NCBI GenBank assembly: GCA_903937385.1
Contig: CAIZZF010000010.1
Coordinates: 62,001 to 126,000, forward strand
Direction: 5' to 3'
DNA from: an uncultured Holophagaceae bacterium
Lineage (GTDB): Bacteria > Acidobacteriota > Holophagae > Holophagales > Holophagaceae
DNA: 64,000 nt
The notes under the pieces are model-generated. The model saw only the letters and a program-made list of their open reading frames with translations. It was not told the DNA's origin and made no database searches. This document shows, in pieces, positions 3,395 through 56,664 of this stretch. The first letter of the stretch is position 1. The number at the start of each line of letters is the position of its first letter. Both the position numbers and the translations under genes were made by a program.

Positions 3395-3505
3395 AACAAC
3401 TCTCGCAGAGGATGCGGAGGGGGCTGAGGTGCGCAGAGAACAGCTGGTAACTCGAAGGCCTCAGCGCCCCTCCGCTCCCCTCGTCTTTTCTCTGCGAGAG
3501 TTGTT
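3395..3505. repeat. Long imperfect inverted repeat, terminal arms identical over 16 bp
   Basis: The outer arms AACAACTCTCGCAGAG (3395-3410) and CTCTGCGAGAGTTGTT (3490-3505) are exact reverse complements. Inner arms near 3413-3428 and 3460-3476 (GCGGAGGGGGCTGAGG and its complement, one base inserted) continue the pairing. No gene lies between. The unit looks like a dispersed hairpin-forming intergenic element. Confidence 0.7.
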
Positions 3506-46854: not shown

Positions 46855-48564
46855 TCAGAAATATTCACTCCACACCATGGAGAAATTTGCTTCGGGCACA
46901 TCTTCCGTTGTCAGTTTTTCAGAGCGAGGCTTTGGAGCCGAGAAAAACTCAAACCCCTTTTCCTTTAACCTCGCAAGGAACCCCTGTCCGTTTCCATCGA
47001 GTTGGCTCACTGACCACACTTGGTAAACAAGTAACCAGTGTTTATCTATTTCTCTGGATTCTGCCGAGAGGAGGTTTTTTGCACACTTGGTCACAGCCGC
47101 CGCTATCCTTTTTCGCCTGTTCCGCTTTGCATATTCAAGCAGCATGACATTGGCAAAACAGTCGCCCAGTCCAACAATCTCGATAAGCTCTTCATCCGTC
47201 AAAGGCAACAGGGTTTCGTGTTTCAAGGCGAGGTAAAGTGCATGTGTGATGGTGTCTGGATAGAGTTTACGCAAACCGAGTTTAATAAGCGAAGCGGAGA
47301 GTTCTGCGATCTTGGAGTCAAGTCCATCAATCCAATAATTGGCGAACACAAACTTATCAAGCAATGGCAGCAAATACGGGTATGCCAGCGTGAGATTCAT
47401 AGCTTCTCTTACATACATGCGCTTTGCACGAGAGTTGAGTTTGCGCGCAAAAACTGGCTCACTTGGATTGTCCTGTGTCCGTCCTTTTGCAATCACCTTG
47501 ATCGCATAGTTCAGCGGAGTAGATTTACCAGCAATCTGAGCACATTCTAGCGCCTGATCAAGGAATGATCGAATTACCGAGAAACGAACTTCACCTCCTT
47601 CAGGGAACGGGAAGCGGTTCAGCACCAACACCCAGTTTTCATCACTTGGACGCGGCAAAGCCTTGATGCATGTCTTCTTTTCATTTAGGGACAACTCAAA
47701 GATCCGAAGACTTAGCCCAAGATCCTGAATGAATTTCTCAGCTTCCTCGTGACTATTAGCATAGAAGCGATAATCGTCAATATGGCGTTTGACCTTCCGA
47801 TGTCCTTTCCTTTGAAGGTCGGCATCAATGCTGGTCAAAATGATCTCGGAGATGATATTTGATGCATTTGGACCGATTAGCAGACCATTCGTTTGCCGAT
47901 CCCTCGTGTTTTGTGTGCACTTATCCAGCAGGTTCCCAGACAGTCTAATTAGGCTACTGGTTTTCTTTGCCTGATCTTTGGTGTGCAATGCCCATGGAAT
48001 AGAATGTGAATATATGCTTGGAAAGCACGAGGCAATATCGGCTTCAACAACATACTGCGCCCCAGCCATCCACTCTAGTTCCTCCTCTTCTAACCGGAAA
48101 CGCTCAGTGCCCCTGTAGTTCATCTCGAAAATACGGCCATTACCAACATGGCGAACATAGATACGGCTTATCGTTGGCCTTGGTAGGTTGCAATGGGTCG
48201 CAATTTCTCGCCAATGTTTGGAGATTGCCAAAGCCTGAACTGCGTAAGACTCGGGATGTGGGATCCCCATATGCCTTGGGATGTTGGTATCCCGGAGGGC
48301 TTCGAATCTCACATAATCGTGAGCACATTTATCAATGGCATTTCGGAGGTTTTTCTCATCGGGCTCATTCAGGATGCCCTTTATTGTTTCAGAAACAAAG
48401 TTGGCTAGCCCCACTGATGTAAAGCAAGGTGGGAGCTTTTCTGCAAACAACCCATGGTCGAGTAGGCCATTGAACACTTCATCTTGGTTCAACTTCTCCT
48501 TGGTCGAGTCCGACCATGCGACGGGAGGAGCTTCAGGTTGCTCGGGCTCTAGGGCTTCGTTCAC
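46855..48564 (-). CDS. Reverse transcriptase of the UG/Abi kind, inside the hsd operon
   Basis: The start is probably the GTG at 48564, 8 bases after AGGG and 13 bp beyond the hsdS stop; a GTG at 48600 inside hsdS is possible but lacks a ribosome-binding site. The 569-residue protein has RT palm motifs: VEADIASCFPSIYSHS (motif A, first aspartate ~176), GLLIGPNASNIISEII (motif B) and HIDDYRFY (motif C, aspartates at about 263-264). LSLNEKKT is motif D. HIDD replaces the common YxDD, as in many antiviral Abi/UG-type RTs. A C-terminal all-helical region of ~230 residues follows, with no endonuclease or maturase. It lies between hsdS and hsdR with almost no spacing, implying co-expression with the restriction enzyme. 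Confidence 0.85.
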   Translation of the reverse strand: MNEALEPEQPEAPPVAWSDSTKEKLNQDEVFNGLLDHGLFAEKLPPCFTSVGLANFVSETIKGILNEPDEKNLRNAIDKCAHDYVRFEALRDTNIPRHMGIPHPESYAVQALAISKHWREIATHCNLPRPTISRIYVRHVGNGRIFEMNYRGTERFRLEEEELEWMAGAQYVVEADIASCFPSIYSHSIPWALHTKDQAKKTSSLIRLSGNLLDKCTQNTRDRQTNGLLIGPNASNIISEIILTSIDADLQRKGHRKVKRHIDDYRFYANSHEEAEKFIQDLGLSLRIFELSLNEKKTCIKALPRPSDENWVLVLNRFPFPEGGEVRFSVIRSFLDQALECAQIAGKSTPLNYAIKVIAKGRTQDNPSEPVFARKLNSRAKRMYVREAMNLTLAYPYLLPLLDKFVFANYWIDGLDSKIAELSASLIKLGLRKLYPDTITHALYLALKHETLLPLTDEELIEIVGLGDCFANVMLLEYAKRNRRKRIAAAVTKCAKNLLSAESREIDKHWLLVYQVWSVSQLDGNGQGFLARLKEKGFEFFSAPKPRSEKLTTEDVPEANFSMVWSEYF

Positions 48565-48577
48565 AGTATCGGCCCTG

Positions 48578-49735
48578 TCACAGGTTGCCGTTGAAGGCAC
48601 GGTGGAGGAGGGATTGCTTCAATTCATCTAGGGCCGTGAGTTTCTGTTGAAGAATGTTCTCAAGTCTCTGGGAAGTTTCCATGATGCCGTCTAGTTGGTC
48701 AATGATGACCCTCTGCTCATTCACAGGCGGGATGACATGGTAGAACTCTCGCTGTTTTGTAATGGGGACCTGGTTTCTCGTGGACTGTCGCATGATCGAG
48801 GTGTACTGCGACTTGAACCCAAACGAACGCATGTAATGGGCTAGGTACATCGGGAGAATGTGGTCTGAGTTGCAACGGTAATAAGTGAGGGATGTTCCAA
48901 GGATCACCTTCGGTTCGACTGTTTGCAGAATTGACACTGGTCCCACTGTGGCGTTGTGGGCAAAAAGAACATCATTGTTCTTGGCTATGCCCTTACGAAG
49001 AAGGGCCGCCCGTTCATGCGACAGATATTTAGCGCGAGACATATCCAAACGATCACCATCCAGGCAGTTCGCAGAAATGTAGGGCACACCCTGAGTGATG
49101 AACTCCTCCTTCCTGGGGTAATCACCTCCATGGTTCCCGTCCAAATGACTCTCAATCCAGCCACGCTCAAGGAGCGTCTCAAGTTGAACTCTCTCCCATC
49201 CCGAACCGCGTGAATTGAAAATTGACTGCAAGTGGCTCTCGAACACCTCTTGTGCGTTTTGAAGGTTCTTCTCGGCGTTAGCTGTGGCGGCAGCAATTCC
49301 ATCGAAGGCTTCATCGAGGATGGTGACGATGCGCTGCTGTTCAGGCAAAATTGGATATGCAACCTTTAGTTCTTTAAGCAATCGGTAGTGTCGGGCGTAC
49401 CCTAGTTGCCTGATGTCAGCACTCAGTAACTGGTAGTAGAAAAATTTCGGAAGCAGGAATGGTTTAGGTTTCAGGATTTTGACTCCATCCGCCCCCAACA
49501 CAAAATCAAAATCAATGTATTTGAGAACCCTGGTGTGGTCACCGAATAGAACAACGGGCCTTTCTACTTTGAATAAATCCGCAGCCTTGTCCCAGTACCC
49601 GTTAAGGAAGCTCTCTTCCTGAGAAACGATTGGGAATTCGCCCTCTTCCAGGAAATCCTTTCGCTGGATCTTGTTGGTATAGGTGACATGTTCGATGGCT
49701 TCTTCAAACGGAACCTGCTTCCACTCCGTTTTCAC
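48578..49735 (-). CDS. hsdS: Type I restriction enzyme specificity subunit
   Basis: The 385-residue S subunit has two target-recognition halves, each followed by a long conserved helix. The first half is about 1-125, with the helix ILPEQQRIVTILDEAFDGIA. The second is about 180-330, with PPVNEQRVIIDQLDGIMETSQRLENIL. The halves recognise the two parts of a split DNA target and bind HsdM and HsdR. Its start overlaps the hsdM stop by 4 bp. The N-terminal half begins VPFEEAIEHV without a strong match to a known recognition sequence, so the target cannot be predicted. Confidence 0.93.
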   Translation of the reverse strand: MKTEWKQVPFEEAIEHVTYTNKIQRKDFLEEGEFPIVSQEESFLNGYWDKAADLFKVERPVVLFGDHTRVLKYIDFDFVLGADGVKILKPKPFLLPKFFYYQLLSADIRQLGYARHYRLLKELKVAYPILPEQQRIVTILDEAFDGIAAATANAEKNLQNAQEVFESHLQSIFNSRGSGWERVQLETLLERGWIESHLDGNHGGDYPRKEEFITQGVPYISANCLDGDRLDMSRAKYLSHERAALLRKGIAKNNDVLFAHNATVGPVSILQTVEPKVILGTSLTYYRCNSDHILPMYLAHYMRSFGFKSQYTSIMRQSTRNQVPITKQREFYHVIPPVNEQRVIIDQLDGIMETSQRLENILQQKLTALDELKQSLLHRAFNGNL

Positions 49736-51186: not shown

Positions 51187-51256
51187 GGGGGCTCTGACTC
51201 CGATGAAGCATTGGAATGGTCAACTGGGGTAATCGGGCCAAGGGACAGGGGTATCG

Positions 51257-51270
51257 TCTTAAGCTTAAGA
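51257..51270. promoter_or_regulatory. 14-bp perfect palindrome upstream of hsdM
   Basis: TCTTAAGCTTAAGA is its own reverse complement and lies 70 bp before the hsdM start, in a 297-bp gap shared with a divergent gene. It may be an operator controlling restriction-system expression. No cognate regulator gene is adjacent. Confidence 0.4.
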
Positions 51271-51483
51271 TTAGTATCTATTTAGGTTGGCCTCGGTGGC
51301 AATCTGAATACAGTCAGTAAGTGCAATGAAATCTCAGGATAATCGAGGGAATTGGTCAATGGATGACACATCCATCCCATGTATCCACCAATCCAGTGAG
51401 GGGTGAGCTCTGTTAGTGAAAGGTATCCTTTGAGAGACCATGCTAATCTTCTAAACAGTTAGATTTAATTGGATTAGCAGAGA

Positions 51484-52038
51484 ATGAACGCTCAGCTCAC
51501 TGCATGGGTAGCCCAAGTCCATGAGGCTACCGGCTATCTGAAGCGCCTCTATTCGGGGCTGAAAGATCCTGTCCAGAGAAAGCGTGCCGAGGCTTCGGGT
51601 GCTTATGCAGGAGAACGGTTTCGATGCACGGGGCGGAAACCTCAGAAAGCCCAGCCTCCGTGGATCGGCCTCCCTTCGTCTCAGTCAGAGCGGACCGCTT
51701 GGATCAGCGTCATCGAAGGGTTGCTCGGCCTGAACCTTCTGGTCGCTCTGGGTTCATCTCCAGACAAGGGGGGAGCAGGGTCACTTCATAAGAGGTTGAA
51801 CCAGGAACTCACCACAGCCATCAGGGGGTTCACGGCAGCCTTCCCTTCAGAACTTGTCCTCCAGGATCTTAATGCCTTATGTGAAGGCGTGGTGGACCAG
51901 GCAGCAGAGGTGGCCGAATCAGCATGGCTGGAAATCAGAAAGGATGGCGAAGAGTCGGTAGGGCAATTCCTAAAGCAGGAGTGGCTGGGGAACATCCGGG
52001 CTCAGCTTCAGGCCCTGGTTGATTCCCAGGGCAGATAA
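51484..52038 (+). CDS. Hypothetical protein divergent from the hsd operon
   Basis: The 184-residue product (MNAQLTAWVAQVHEATGYLK) is mostly helical. It has a glycine/proline-rich central section (RKPQKAQPPWIGLPSS) and a C-terminal region WLEIRKDGEESVGQFLKQEW. There is no signal peptide or membrane helix. I do not recognise it. It shares the intergenic region with hsdM and could be regulated together with it. Confidence 0.6.
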   Translation: MNAQLTAWVAQVHEATGYLKRLYSGLKDPVQRKRAEASGAYAGERFRCTGRKPQKAQPPWIGLPSSQSERTAWISVIEGLLGLNLLVALGSSPDKGGAGSLHKRLNQELTTAIRGFTAAFPSELVLQDLNALCEGVVDQAAEVAESAWLEIRKDGEESVGQFLKQEWLGNIRAQLQALVDSQGR

Positions 52039-52069
52039 CCAGTCGTTGATTTGCCTACGGACGGTTCGA

Positions 52070-52243
52070 CTAAGTCTTCCTTGGGGCCAATAGGAATCTG
52101 GCTGAGAATTTAAACAGGTGCCTATCCTCATTGACTGGCTTAACCCATTTTATTCCATTTGTTTGGCCTTCCTCGACGGCGTTTTGTTCAGCTCCTTCAA
52201 GGAATAGAGCGGTCTCTCTGTCGATCTGTGCGGTTGTTCTCAT
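52070..52243 (-). CDS. Very small hypothetical protein (57 aa)
   Basis: The ATG at 52243 is preceded by AGAGGTGACCC, a good ribosome-binding site, which rejects the upstream in-frame start at 52276. The 57 residues begin MRTTAQIDRETALFLEGAEQ and end basic (LFKFSARFLLAPRKT). It is convergent with the 184-residue gene, 31 bp apart. No family is recognised. It could be a small regulator or partner. Confidence 0.5.
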   Translation of the reverse strand: MRTTAQIDRETALFLEGAEQNAVEEGQTNGIKWVKPVNEDRHLFKFSARFLLAPRKT

Positions 52244-52385
52244 TGGGTCACCTCTATAAAGAGGTGAGAAGTTCATGATTGAAATGGTTTAATTCAACTT
52301 TTACTCAGTATTAGTACTGAATTTGGGGAATTTTACGGAAGTCATGAACAATAAATCTAATTATATCAACATCGAAATCATATAA

Positions 52386-52970
52386 GTGCGCCAATTGGGC
52401 GTGACTATATCTTTTCGCCCTGGAACCGGCGCCTGGAGCGATGGAGTTCGGAGCCGAAGGAAGGTCAGGTATGTTCCTGGACGCCTTTGATCTTCGAGCT
52501 GGTCCGACCAATCGACGGGCCAATCTGTCGGCCCAGCTCAATTCCCAGGATGAACTGTCCTCAGAACCAGTATCGGCTGAGTACCCCCTCCCAGATGTTC
52601 TGGGTTCGGGGTAGCTCGGGAGGAAACGGTGCAGAGGACATTCAGAAATCCCCTTCAAAGCAGTATCAAGCCATCGAAGGGGCTAACCATGAAACAGCAG
52701 AGACGCCACCGATTCGATACTTCAAGTGGTCTTAGAACGGGTTCTATACAGCTCATGGAGCCCAGGTCTGAGGGGAATGGTCTCTCTCTTAGAGGTCTAG
52801 ATCCGACTCAAGCCTCAAGACCACCTCCCTTCAATAGAGGGTCATGGGCTTCTCGCTCGGCAACCAGGTGAAATCAAGCCTCACGGCAACCATTCACATC
52901 CGCCAACCGCGAGAAGCCCATGACCCTGAGGCGCCAAACCGTTATTTACTACAGTTTTACTTGGATTTAA
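52386..52970 (+). ncRNA. Candidate structured RNA upstream of the group II-type RT (possible intron 5' part)
   Basis: The ~600 bp before the RT gene have no supported coding region and are full of potential stems. GTGCGCC at 52386-52392, followed by an AATT-GGGCG partner, resembles the 5' end of bacterial group II introns. Its distance to the ORF (603 bp) suits domains I-III plus the start of domain IV. Other stems are GGGCC/GGCCC (about 52,518-52,535), a two-part hairpin around CCCAGA-TGT-TCTGGG (about 52,585-52,612) and CCCCTTC/GAAGGGG (about 52,651-52,682). A perfect 19-bp stem lies at 52838-52927. No domain V was found after the ORF. The alternative is a non-intron RNA made for the RT. 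Confidence 0.45.
52838..52927 (+). repeat. Perfect 19-bp inverted repeat just upstream of the RT gene
   Basis: AGGGTCATGGGCTTCTCGC (52838-52856) and its exact complement (52909-52927) enclose a 52-nt loop, ending 61 bp before the RT start. An RNA from this strand would form a long rigid hairpin. Confidence 0.85.
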
Positions 52971-52988
52971 GGAAGGAGGTCGAACCTC

Positions 52989-54503
52989 ATGGACAGCACA
53001 ACTGAATCCCCAATGAATACAGGGAAACAAAGCCTACATGGTCGATCTCAGTGGATCAACCGCACACAGAGGCGTTGCAAGCAGCATTTGAGAACCATCC
53101 TGACCGCGAAAGTCAGGAATAAGGCACTCAGACAGGCAGCCGAGGTCACCTTCCTAAACCAGGCGCATCTTGAGCAGAAATTCCCGCTCACCAGTCTTAA
53201 CCATTACTTTGACCTTCAGAGGTTCTATACAGCTACCCAGCTAGTAAACCCAAATGGCTGTCCCGGAGTTGATAGACAGACCCTATATGACTTCCTCACA
53301 TGCACTGATCCCATGATGCTTGTGAATGAAGTGAAATCCAAATCATACAGGCACAGTCCCTACATGGAAGCCCTGATCGAGAATCTGGACGGTAGCACAA
53401 GGACTCTGATGATCCCTATCTTCAAAGATAGGGTTATCCAGTGCACCTGGCTTCTGATCATCGGACCAATCTTAGACAGAGTGTTTCTCAAATGCTCCTA
53501 CGGATACCGTCCGAATCAGAACTGCCATATGGCAATTCATGATCTTGACTCAGAAATCAGGGAACGCCAAAGAGTTTGGGTAATTGATGCGGACATCCTG
53601 AAATTCTTCACCAATGTCCTGCATCAACCGTTCATGCGTATTTTCCGCCTCTATTTCAAGGATGCAATTCTTCTACACTCGATTGAGTCGATGCTCGGCT
53701 CTATGAGGCAGAAGAAATCTAACGGTAACTCCTCTCCCAAAGGCTTACCTCAGGGTGGAGTTCTGGCTCCCTTGCTGTCGAATCTCTTCCTTCACTATGT
53801 TCTTGATCTCTACTTCCATGAAAGCATTCTCCCTTCCCTCAAAGGCTGGGGAAAGCTGATCAGATATGCGGATGACTTCCTTGTCCTCTGCGGATCTGAA
53901 GAAGATGCGAGACTGGCCCACAGGATGATCCAGGAGCGAATCGAGCAATATGGCCTTTCTCTAAATGAGGACAAAACCACGGTTCGAAATATCTCCAATC
54001 CAGACATTGACCCTCTACTGGAAGGTGAAGGTCCAAGAATGCTTAGCTTTCTTGGATTTGAACTCTCATGGCATAGGTCAGTCGAAGGCAACTATCAACT
54101 GGGTCACAGAACGGAAGAGAAGAGAAGGAAGAAGGCAATTCTGAAATGGAAAGATCGAATGAGAAGGTATGAAGAAGAATGGTCTGAAGGGAACTCACCT
54201 CACCTAATCGGAAGGCTACAGGGCTCTGCTATCTACGGAGTCAATGGGTACAACAATTACTATGGGGTCGTGGGTAATGAACAGGCACTAGAGGAAAATG
54301 AAGAGCAGGTCTACTCAGAAGCTGCACAGTTTCTTGATGATCGCCCTGTCTTCGGAGGCTCTGATAGGAATCCGTTCAGGGAGGACCCTGAACGAATCTG
54401 GCCTAGCGTCAAGATGCGAACACTTGCTGAACTAGCCCAACCAAGGCGAGTTGCAGATTTAAACATTTCGAGAATTCCCAACTGGGGAGGGAGGGGCAAA
54501 TGA
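52989..54503 (+). CDS. Group II intron-type reverse transcriptase/maturase-like protein
   Basis: The start follows GGAAGGAGG. The 504-residue protein carries the RT blocks of group II intron proteins: GCPGVDRQTLYDF (about 90-102), IPIFKDRVIQ, YGYRPNQNCHMAIHDL and WVIDADILKFF (aspartates at 200 and 202). GLPQGGVLAPLLSNLFL (252-268), YADDF (293-297), GLSLNEDKT and FLGFEL follow. A stretch NGYNNYYGVVGNEQAL near 413-428 is like the maturase (X) domain. No HNH endonuclease is present, and the last 60 residues have no known match. Clearly different from the HIDD-type RT in the hsd operon. Either a degenerate intron's protein or a domesticated RT with its own RNA. Confidence 0.85.
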   Translation: MDSTTESPMNTGKQSLHGRSQWINRTQRRCKQHLRTILTAKVRNKALRQAAEVTFLNQAHLEQKFPLTSLNHYFDLQRFYTATQLVNPNGCPGVDRQTLYDFLTCTDPMMLVNEVKSKSYRHSPYMEALIENLDGSTRTLMIPIFKDRVIQCTWLLIIGPILDRVFLKCSYGYRPNQNCHMAIHDLDSEIRERQRVWVIDADILKFFTNVLHQPFMRIFRLYFKDAILLHSIESMLGSMRQKKSNGNSSPKGLPQGGVLAPLLSNLFLHYVLDLYFHESILPSLKGWGKLIRYADDFLVLCGSEEDARLAHRMIQERIEQYGLSLNEDKTTVRNISNPDIDPLLEGEGPRMLSFLGFELSWHRSVEGNYQLGHRTEEKRRKKAILKWKDRMRRYEEEWSEGNSPHLIGRLQGSAIYGVNGYNNYYGVVGNEQALEENEEQVYSEAAQFLDDRPVFGGSDRNPFREDPERIWPSVKMRTLAELAQPRRVADLNISRIPNWGGRGK

Positions 54504-54555
54504 GGCTGATGATTAGATCACCAAGTCGTATCTGAATGTCGAGTGGGGGAATGGC

Positions 54556-54594
54556 CCTTGAATCCAATCAGACTTCAACTGACTGGATTCAAGG
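54556..54594. terminator. Strong hairpin between convergent genes
   Basis: CCTTGAATCCAATCAG and CTGACTGGATTCAAGG pair over 16 bp with one mismatch around a 7-base loop. It lies between the RT gene and the convergent 54603-55193 gene. There is no T-run, so it may act as a bidirectional stop or RNA 3'-end element. Confidence 0.6.
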
Positions 54595-54602
54595 TCGGGT
54601 AG

Positions 54603-55193
54603 CTACTTTCGGCGAACCGCCTTGCCTTTAAGGCCAGGTCGGCCGGTGCGCTTATTAGACTTTACATAACCTAGGCTGTTCCGGCCGAAGTCAGTATCGA
54701 GCTTCTGAATGATCGTTTTGAGCTCTGACCGAAACTCCTCCTTCTGAACCAACTCATAGAAGGAGGAGGTGATTTCCTCCTCAGTGTTGCCCTTGAACCT
54801 GCGGCAAATCGCCCTGGCCAATACTGCGGCTGTCTTATTGATTCGGCTCCCCCGATGTCCGAGGTGGGGTTTCTTCGTAGGCTTCAATTCGACCATCAAT
54901 TTGAGTGCGGCTTGGTACGAGAGCCCCAGTCTTTCAATTGATTCCAACACCTTCCCATACCGCCTCTCCAAGGCCGAATGGAAGATGAACCCGTGTCGTT
55001 GCTCTGGCTTTTCAAGGCAGAGGCGTTCGATGCGGGTAATTACGGAGACAGGCAAAGATTCATTGTTCACAAGATAACTTGCCTTGGCTCCCTTCCCACC
55101 TTTGCCAGCGACATATCTGATTCCCCCGAGTTCTTCAGGCGATTCCTCTACCTTCGGTGTCCGTTCTGGCTGTTTCTTACTAAAAAGCCCCAT
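54603..55193 (-). CDS. Hypothetical protein (196 aa)
   Basis: The start at 55193 follows GGAGGTAATACCC, a strong ribosome-binding site. The protein begins MGLFSKKQPERTPKVEESPE and ends in a basic tail (SNKRTGRPGLKGKAVRRK), which suggests nucleic acid binding. It has no membrane segment. Leucine- and lysine-rich helices occupy the middle. The family is not recognised. Confidence 0.6.
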   Translation of the reverse strand: MGLFSKKQPERTPKVEESPEELGGIRYVAGKGGKGAKASYLVNNESLPVSVITRIERLCLEKPEQRHGFIFHSALERRYGKVLESIERLGLSYQAALKLMVELKPTKKPHLGHRGSRINKTAAVLARAICRRFKGNTEEEITSSFYELVQKEEFRSELKTIIQKLDTDFGRNSLGYVKSNKRTGRPGLKGKAVRRK

Positions 55194-55517
55194 GGGTATT
55201 ACCTCCGGAGGAAATATCGCCGGTATTGATCAAACGACAAGTCACCCAGGCACTAGGAGAGGAGGCTTGGCTTAAGAAAAATCCATTCGTGGCCACCAAG
55301 AACCCCGAAGAAGCCAGTAATAGGAATCAGAGGACGCAAGGAGGTAAGGCAGATGGAACCCACTGACAGAGCACCACCCAAACTCGGCACCTCAAGTCCT
55401 AGTTCGTAAACCTTAACTTCATTGACAGGGGACCTTCCCAAATACCTTCGCAGAATTGCCAACCACGGATTGAGCTTCTTGAAGGAGGAATACCGAGAGC
55501 TAAAAGGAGAAACGATT
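55194..55517. other. Gene-free stretch
   Basis: No convincing coding region. Its right end carries AAGGAG at 55504-55509, the ribosome-binding site of the next gene. No hairpin or operator was noticed. Confidence 0.5.
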
Positions 55518-56027
55518 ATGAATGACATTATGCTTTTCGACAAAATGAACAACATCCCAGGCCACACCCAAGGGTTCTTCGAGCAACTCGGGAAAATGCT
55601 CGAACGAAATCGCCAAGAATGCTGCCCAAAAAATCCTGAATTCATGCCGGTAGTGGATTACATGTCTTCGGCTCTTCAGAACAAATTGCCGCTAAGAAGC
55701 GCCAGAATTCATGCCAATGATGGCGTGGGAGCTTTCACTATCGAAATCGGTGCTCCCTCCAATCGTGAGCGCGTCAAGGTATTCGCGCATAAACACGGAC
55801 CACTCGACCCATCGAACCCCAAGGGTCGAAATCCTGGAGAATTGTTCCTATGGGGCCAGAATGGTTTGAGAAAACGCAGGTCGTATAACGATAATACAGC
55901 CCTTTGGATAATCAATTCTGTGCTGGCGAATGGAGGAATCTACGCAGCAGTGCCAATCGAAGAATCATCGGATGACATTGATATGGATCTTGAAGGGGTC
56001 CTTAGCCTGTTTCGCCTAGTTGGCTAA
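55518..56027 (+). CDS. Hypothetical protein (169 aa)
   Basis: AAGGAG at 55504-55509, 8 bp before the ATG, selects 55518 over an upstream in-frame start at 55422. The protein reads MNDIMLFDKMNNIPGHTQGF and then a mixed alpha/beta domain (GAFTIEIGAPSNRERVKVFAHKHG). An acidic segment (EESSDDIDMDLEG) sits near the end. No family is recognised. It overlaps the convergent HTH gene by 12 bp. Confidence 0.6.
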   Translation: MNDIMLFDKMNNIPGHTQGFFEQLGKMLERNRQECCPKNPEFMPVVDYMSSALQNKLPLRSARIHANDGVGAFTIEIGAPSNRERVKVFAHKHGPLDPSNPKGRNPGELFLWGQNGLRKRRSYNDNTALWIINSVLANGGIYAAVPIEESSDDIDMDLEGVLSLFRLVG

Positions 56028-56444
56028 TTGAGCCTGGATTGCCTTCTTGCCGAGCTTCCTAACGGCGGCGATGGCGGCGAGCTGGCTCTGTCGGGGCCGG
56101 GACTTCTCGGCCTCCCAGTTATAGATGGTCTGGGCTGAGACACCGATCAGAGCCCCCATATCCCCGGCAGACAGACCTAGCTTCTGCCTCTGGGCGGCAA
56201 TTCGCTTAGCACTGAACCTGAACTTAGTGGATGCCTCACCCTCCACCTCAACAGTCGCCTTCTTAGGCCCATTCTTCCCAAGTCTGGCAACCTGCTTCTC
56301 TAGGGCGGCCACCTGTCGCTTTAGGGCCGCGATATCAGACCGGTACTGCGCCGATGATTTCTTAAGGCCCTCTGCTTCCTTGCGGACTTCTTTCTTAGCT
56401 AGGCGAACGATCTCATCCTTCATGACCGAGGCAATGTTTGGCAT
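56016..56444 (-). CDS. XRE-type helix-turn-helix protein with coiled coil
   Basis: The 142-residue product starts after GGGGG-type spacing (CAGGGGGTATCAAA ATG). Residues ~5-60 form a charged coiled coil (IAALKRQVAALEKQVARL). The C-terminal half is an XRE/Cro helix-turn-helix: RIAAQRQKLGLSAGDMGALIGVSAQTIYNWE. It should bind DNA as a dimer and may control neighbouring island genes. It ends convergently with the 169-residue gene. Confidence 0.82.
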   Translation of the reverse strand: MPNIASVMKDEIVRLAKKEVRKEAEGLKKSSAQYRSDIAALKRQVAALEKQVARLGKNGPKKATVEVEGEASTKFRFSAKRIAAQRQKLGLSAGDMGALIGVSAQTIYNWEAEKSRPRQSQLAAIAAVRKLGKKAIQAQLAN

Positions 56445-56664
56445 TTTGATACCCCCTGTGGAAGAGTTGTGTGCTTGAGCTACTTGAGATCAAGAATGAA
56501 TGATTTGGATTAATTACACCATCCATAGCACCTGCCTTCACCAAGGCGCTGAGCGGATCGCGGATGCCTGGTCTCTCGGCCTTCGGCCAGGCCATCGTGT
56601 GCTTCCCTGGTTCACTAGCCAACGAATTTGATCCCATGGTTCCAGTAGGTCCTGGCGCCCATTC

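What the first reader, a model, noticed from the sequence alone, without database searches (positions are those of the whole stretch)
52838..52927. Perfect 19-bp stem with a 52-nt loop directly before the RT gene
A 19-bp perfect inverted repeat 61 bp upstream of the RT start is far from chance and is in a place where RT-associated RNAs usually lie. Retron msd regions and DRT RNAs have such long hairpins. Retron RT hallmarks (VTG block) are missing, so this would be a different RNA. In group II introns the stem could be domain III or IVa.
Basis: seen in the sequence. Interest (0 to 1): 0.52.

Follow-up and report, generated by a model that had tools for sequence, protein, structure and literature searches.

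The report
Long RNA-like hairpin before orphan RT
A real, perfect 19-base-pair hairpin sits just ahead of an unusual, single-copy reverse transcriptase gene that descends from mobile introns but has no recognisable intron around it; it may be an RNA partner or control element of that enzyme, but no relative close enough to prove this was found.

Summary
In detail: a perfect 19-bp inverted repeat (52838-52856 / 52909-52927, 52-nt loop) lies 61 nt before an ORF with a good ribosome-binding site. It is the longest perfect stem of the window; 30 random windows reached at most 13 bp. As RNA it folds at -51.3 kcal/mol, z -9.2. The gene (52989-54503, 504 aa) encodes an apparently intact RT (YADD) with the fold of group II intron RTs, but no group II intron RNA was found around it, even at permissive thresholds. 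Of 32 relatives' loci scanned, 27 carry intron RNA. The RT is single-copy, at most 39% identical to anything found, on a very long branch. It is not a retron, not DRT10/UG17, not a recognisable intron. Best reading: a leader-RNA hairpin bound by its own, domesticated group II-like RT (moderate confidence); a DNA-level inverted-duplication scar is the main rival. A 9-nt exact direct repeat in the loop (24 of 5000 shuffles found after the fact) allows a bolder, untested reading as a repeat template.

The parts
52838..52856 (+). 5' arm of the 19-bp perfect stem
52857..52908 (+). 52-nt loop; holds an exact 9-nt direct repeat CGGCAACCA at 52858-52866 and 52884-52892 (period 26); a third, 7-of-9 copy (52901-52909) runs one base into the 3' arm
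52909..52927 (+). 3' arm of the 19-bp perfect stem
52989..54503 (+). solitary group II-like reverse transcriptase, 504 aa, YADD, RT plus thumb/X-like region, no endonuclease domain found, RRSQR region of intron RTs not conserved
52974..52979 (+). Shine-Dalgarno-like AGGAGG of the RT gene
52386..52988 (+). possible leader (603 nt) of the RT gene, apparently non-coding; z -6.8 as a whole, but only -2.1 for 52386-52830 without the stem; begins with GTGCGCC, the 5'-end heptamer of many relatives' introns (possibly chance)

Best explanation
The stem is a hairpin in the 5' leader RNA of a solitary, domesticated group II-like reverse transcriptase, and the RT binds it. Proposed steps: (1) the leader and RT are transcribed together (inferred); (2) the 19-bp stem forms in the RNA (predicted by folding, not shown in cells); (3) the RT, which keeps the RT/thumb fold of intron RTs but has lost the intron, binds the hairpin next to its own start codon, much as intron RTs bind domain IVa (inferred by analogy); (4) binding either limits translation of the RT or gives it a dedicated RNA partner for cDNA synthesis (inferred; the data do not choose). 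Shown here: the stem, its predicted stability, its position, the predicted RT fold, and the failure to find intron RNA. All else is inference.
For: Stem far from chance and the most extreme fold of its neighbourhood. It lies 61 nt before an RT ORF with a strong SD. The RT is group II-like: TIGR04416 243.9 bits, cut-off 300; best fold matches are intron RTs 6ar3/6ar1; catalytic YADD and the invariant columns of 46 RTs are kept. No intron RNA is found while 27 of 32 relatives scanned have it. In 141 other RT loci no perfect stem of 19 bp occurs in the 500 nt before the estimated start region; 3 have 16-18 bp. Precedents: intron RTs bind the DIVa stem-loop (passages of PMC5037169 and PMC4524724) and DRT9 RTs bind an ncRNA encoded immediately upstream (passages of PMC12483538).
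Against: No homologous locus, hence no covariation and no proof of selection on the stem. No sigma-70-type promoter-like site on the + strand between 51200 and 55300 (other promoter types not covered). The stem has no G-U pair, and both strands fold almost equally well, which also fits a recent DNA-level inverted duplication. The leader without the stem is only weakly structured (z -2.1). Two RTs of the same genus without detected intron RNA (L006, L007) show no comparable stem.
Confidence: 0.4

Rival explanations
1. DNA-level palindrome with no tie to the RT: a recent inverted duplication (template switch at replication or repair), or an unknown recombination or protein-binding site that happens to lie before the RT gene.
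For: Perfect Watson-Crick arms without G-U; both strands fold alike; single copy in the genome, the other matches being short and near chance level; short local direct repeats as well (10 nt at 52808/52874 and 9 nt at 52858/52884), as expected of a stretch with local duplications; the region is accessory, GC about 0.5.
Against: Placement 61 nt before an RT start would be coincidence; an unselected perfect stem should decay unless very recent.
Confidence: 0.28
2. Relic of a group II intron: the 603 nt before the RT are a decayed intron 5' half (start GTGCGCC at 52386), and the stem is a leftover or expanded domain IV hairpin next to the ORF.
For: GTGCGCC at 52386 followed by a 6-pair hairpin, at a distance to the RT motif (879 nt, my count) within the range listed for relatives; 44 of 74 relatives listed start with the same heptamer; RT of intron type.
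Against: GTGCGCC is not enriched in the window (6 found, 12.6 expected); a profile of relatives' 5' RNA gives no match in the leader; no D1-D4 or domain V match at E up to 10.
Confidence: 0.14
3. Regulatory hairpin that does not involve the RT protein, such as an attenuator or a translation-coupling element with small leader ORFs (52689-52871 and 52844-53005, a chain of overlapping ORFs ending in the RT start).
For: The two short ORFs overlap each other and the RT start, and the second one begins inside the 5' arm.
Against: Codon scores of the short ORFs are -0.088 and 0.059 against a median of -0.027 and an upper quartile of 0.054 for 177 open stretches of like length, so no clear sign of coding; no T-run after the stem and a 52-nt loop, so not an intrinsic terminator.
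Confidence: 0.13
4. Template loop: the hairpin is an ncRNA whose loop the RT copies repeatedly, the 9-nt repeat letting the cDNA realign after each 26-nt unit, as A-B-A' does in DRT10.
For: Exact 9-nt direct repeat in a 52-nt loop, 24 of 5000 shuffles as long; DRT10 needs A-B-A' and a stable stem-loop (passages of PMC12632851); defence-island setting.
Against: Noticed after the fact; 49 of 4920 52-nt stretches of the window do as well; RT is not UG17/DRT10; no relative to test.
Confidence: 0.05

Closest known systems
Group II-like RTs without intron RNA (G2L groups of Simon and Zimmerly, as described in PMC4244168)
   Same: Group II-type RT with thumb/maturase-like region and no detectable intron RNA
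   Different: YADD, whereas G2L4 has YIDD and G2L3/UG10 has valine in place of the alanine (passages read); no stable place in any tree; an extreme upstream stem, which I have not seen described for G2L RTs (passages only)
Group II intron domain IVa, the high-affinity site of the intron-encoded protein
   Same: Stem-loop just before the ORF of an intron-type RT
   Different: No intron core or domain V found; the stem here does not contain the SD or start codon of the RT
DRT9 and DRT10 (UG17) with RT-bound ncRNA
   Same: Upstream structured sequence next to an RT in a defence island; possible repeated segment in the loop
   Different: RT of another type; no SLATT gene found among the neighbours searched; YADD and not the YVDD of DRT10; length and structure of any RNA unknown here
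Retron msr-msd
   Same: Long hairpin upstream of an RT gene
   Different: RT not of retron type; no VTG; loop of only 52 nt; no msr or branching-G context identified (retron layout recalled)

Membership tests
Mobile group II intron | Domain V / intron RNA core around the RT ORF | tested here: not met
   no intron match; positive in 27 of 32 relatives with the gathering-score search
Mobile group II intron | 5' end GUGYG at the expected distance | tested here: inconclusive
   GTGCGCC at 52386, but the heptamer is not enriched in the window
Mobile group II intron | RT of intron type above the curated cut-off | tested here: not met
   TIGR04416 243.9 bits, cut-off 300, though it is the best NCBIfam match and the fold is of that type
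Mobile group II intron | Conserved C-terminal RRSQR region of this class of intron RTs | tested here: not met
   Alignment A1: the query reads DDRPVFGG where most intron RTs have RRSQR
Group II-like RT without intron (G2L, broad sense) | Group II-type RT and maturase-like region, no intron RNA | tested here: met
   the maturase-like region is seen by alignment and fold only
G2L4 | YIDD in RT5 | tested here: not met
   YADD in P0001; definition from PMC4244168
UG10 (G2L3) | Valine for alanine in YADD | tested here: not met
DRT10 / UG17 | RT matches the UG17 model better than unrelated intron-type RTs do | tested here: not met
   88.3 bits for the query against 101.0, 103.1 and 127.4 for L002, L006, L007
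DRT10 / UG17 | SLATT gene in the operon | tested here: not met
   No SLATT among the Pfam matches of the neighbouring genes scanned; several ORFs nearby have no family match at all
DRT10 / UG17 | A-B-A' repeat in the template loop | tested here: inconclusive
   9-nt exact repeat, 24 of 5000 shuffles; 49 of 4920 window stretches
Retron | Retron-type RT (family model, VTG) | tested here: not met
   retron_St85 39.2 bits, cut-off 235; no VTG (the motif is named in the finding and in PMC4244168)
RT-bound ncRNA (any) | Transcription and RT binding of the hairpin | not testable with these tools
   needs RNA-seq and RNA immunoprecipitation
RT-bound ncRNA (any) | Compensatory changes in the stem | not testable with these tools
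   no homologous leader found

The most novel reading that the evidence does not exclude
A domesticated group II-type RT, freed of its intron, has acquired a hairpin RNA whose 52-nt loop it copies over and over, using the 9-nt repeat to realign, giving 26-nt tandem-repeat cDNA: a telomerase-like or DRT10-like mechanism evolved in the group II branch of RTs.
Probability: 0.05. Interest if true: 0.85.

Novelty: new variant of a known kind. Interest (0 to 1): 0.38.

Why it matters
Intronless group II-type RTs are the likely raw material of several domesticated RT systems. A member with a strong candidate RNA partner encoded next to it would let one test how an intron RT exchanges its ribozyme for another RNA, or keeps only its binding hairpin. 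If the stem is not transcribed or not bound, the case is an ordinary sequence scar before an orphan RT.

Tried and rejected

Copies of the hairpin: no other copy in the own genome beyond short matches; the best of them, C1:26819, looks like coding sequence. In 47 genomes of the genus two short matches at E about 0.0016, L216 and L217; read both seem to lie in coding sequence (my reading, no gene call was run), L217 in the counterpart of the region of L029. Taken as chance. No exact match of an 18-nt piece of the arm in viral contigs; leader DNA has no match in plasmids or phages. MITE rejected: single copy and no target duplication that I could see.

A kinship of the RT with L006 and L007 (same genus, no intron RNA found by Rfam in their loci): grouped at SH-aLRT 93 in one quick tree with a long-branch warning, not kept in the others. 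Rejected as a claim. An earlier count said '11 of 12' relatives with intron RNA, flagged there as to be checked; the count is 10 of 12. The ORF neighbours 51484-52038 and 54603-55193 have no match in plasmids and no family.

Full report
Observation. The inverted repeat is as described: 19 of 19 pairs, 52-nt loop, 61 nt before the ATG at 52989. It is the longest perfect stem in the window; the next has 16 bp, and 30 Markov windows gave 10-13. The 90-nt stretch folds at -51.3 kcal/mol, z -9.2, 0 of 200 shuffles as good. Of 40 windows of 150 nt between 51200 and 55249, 52800-52949 is the extreme on both strands.

The gene behind it. P0001 (504 aa) matches RVT_1 and, best in NCBIfam, TIGR04416 group II RT/maturase at 243.9 bits, below the cut-off of 300. 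The AlphaFold2 model made with 46 RTs has mean pLDDT 83.1 and pTM 0.82; the best PDB matches are the group II intron RTs 6ar3 and 6ar1, E about 5e-20, 24% identity, with G2L4, DRT9, DGR and DRT2 RTs further down. YADD and the invariant columns are kept. In alignment A1 the RRSQR region of intron RTs is not conserved in it.

No intron. No Rfam match at gathering score in the window and no group II match at E up to 10 in 51200-55300, 52300-52990 or 54400-55300. The same library at gathering score hits group II RNA in 10 of 12 relatives (none in L006, L007) and 17 of 20 others that I chose out of the 80 (none in L135, L138, L166, of which L135 and L166 are cut off near the ORF). One hint stays: GTGCGCC at 52386, as in 44 of 74 relatives listed, with a small hairpin behind it. 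But the heptamer is not enriched (6 found, 12.6 expected), and a profile of relatives' 5' RNA, searched at E up to 100, lists no match in the leader.

The leader. 52386-52988 has z -6.8 over 20 shuffles; without the stem, 52386-52830, z is -2.1, 3 of 100 shuffles as good. So most of the signal is the stem. Two short ORFs overlap it but show no clear coding signal. The loop holds CGGCAACCA twice, 26 nt apart (24 of 5000 shuffles reach 9 nt; 49 of 4920 stretches of the window do, 11 of 1230 disjoint ones), and TCAAGCCTCA stands at 52808 and 52874. I looked for this after reading about DRT10, so it is a lead only.

Relatives. The RT is single-copy and has no close relative in any search (the highest identity, L147, is 39% over 222 residues). 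Many of these searches were samples or were capped. Its branch is 1.9-2.9 changes per column, and its neighbours change with the rows included. For the upstream-stem survey, 189 of 194 loci had an RT-like ORF; after dropping the 4 self loci and those without the anchor motif or with under 400 nt upstream, 141 remained; the longest perfect stem in a 500-nt stretch before the estimated start region was 18 bp, and three had 16-18. Redundant copies, such as ten of one intron, were not removed from that count, and the start regions are estimates.

Setting. Accessory region, GC about 0.5, with a type I restriction-modification set and a Drt4-type RT (46855-48600, minus strand; NCBIfam Drt4 450.4 bits, cut-off 450; PADLOC), and a DUF5131 gene. 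In 100 relatives, DNA of 51190-56500 matches only over the HTH gene region near 56000-56450.

Mechanism. Most likely, I think, the RT binds the hairpin in its own leader, for control of translation or as an RNA partner. Intron RTs bind DIVa (passages), and DRT9 RTs bind an ncRNA immediately upstream (passages). None of this is shown here. A DNA-level scar is the main rival, for the stem has no G-U pair and no proven conservation. The most novel reading, a repeat template, has a low probability.

Literature. Four searches; I read passages only of PMC4244168, PMC5037169, PMC12483538, PMC12632851 and PMC4524724, and listings or abstract beginnings of the rest. I did not find this locus or an upstream hairpin of G2L RTs there, but these searches are narrow. 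Retron details such as msr-msd layout and branching G are recalled and come from no call.

Noticed in passing
46855-48600 (-): A Drt4-type antiviral RT lies between the specificity and restriction subunit genes of a type I restriction-modification set.
   Followed up: partly
3395-3410 / 3490-3505: Second-longest perfect inverted repeat of the window, 16 bp with a 79-nt loop.
   Followed up: no
54556-54571 / 54579-54594: A 16-nt, 94% complementary hairpin with a 7-nt loop just after the RT gene and before a convergent ORF; not listed by the terminator scan.
   Followed up: no
52689-52871 and 52844-53005 (+): Two short ORFs overlap each other and the RT start, one starting inside the 5' arm; codon usage gives no clear support.
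   Followed up: partly
L006 and L007: Two further group II-like RTs in the same genus without detected intron RNA; L006 has a recombinase-like ORF upstream (my reading), L007 an unknown 309-aa ORF.
   Followed up: partly
L125: 3557, 6654, 8107: Three group II D1-D4 matches in a row in Catenovulum.
   Followed up: no
56016-56444 (-): HTH gene with related copies elsewhere in the own genome and in many genomes of the genus.
   Followed up: no
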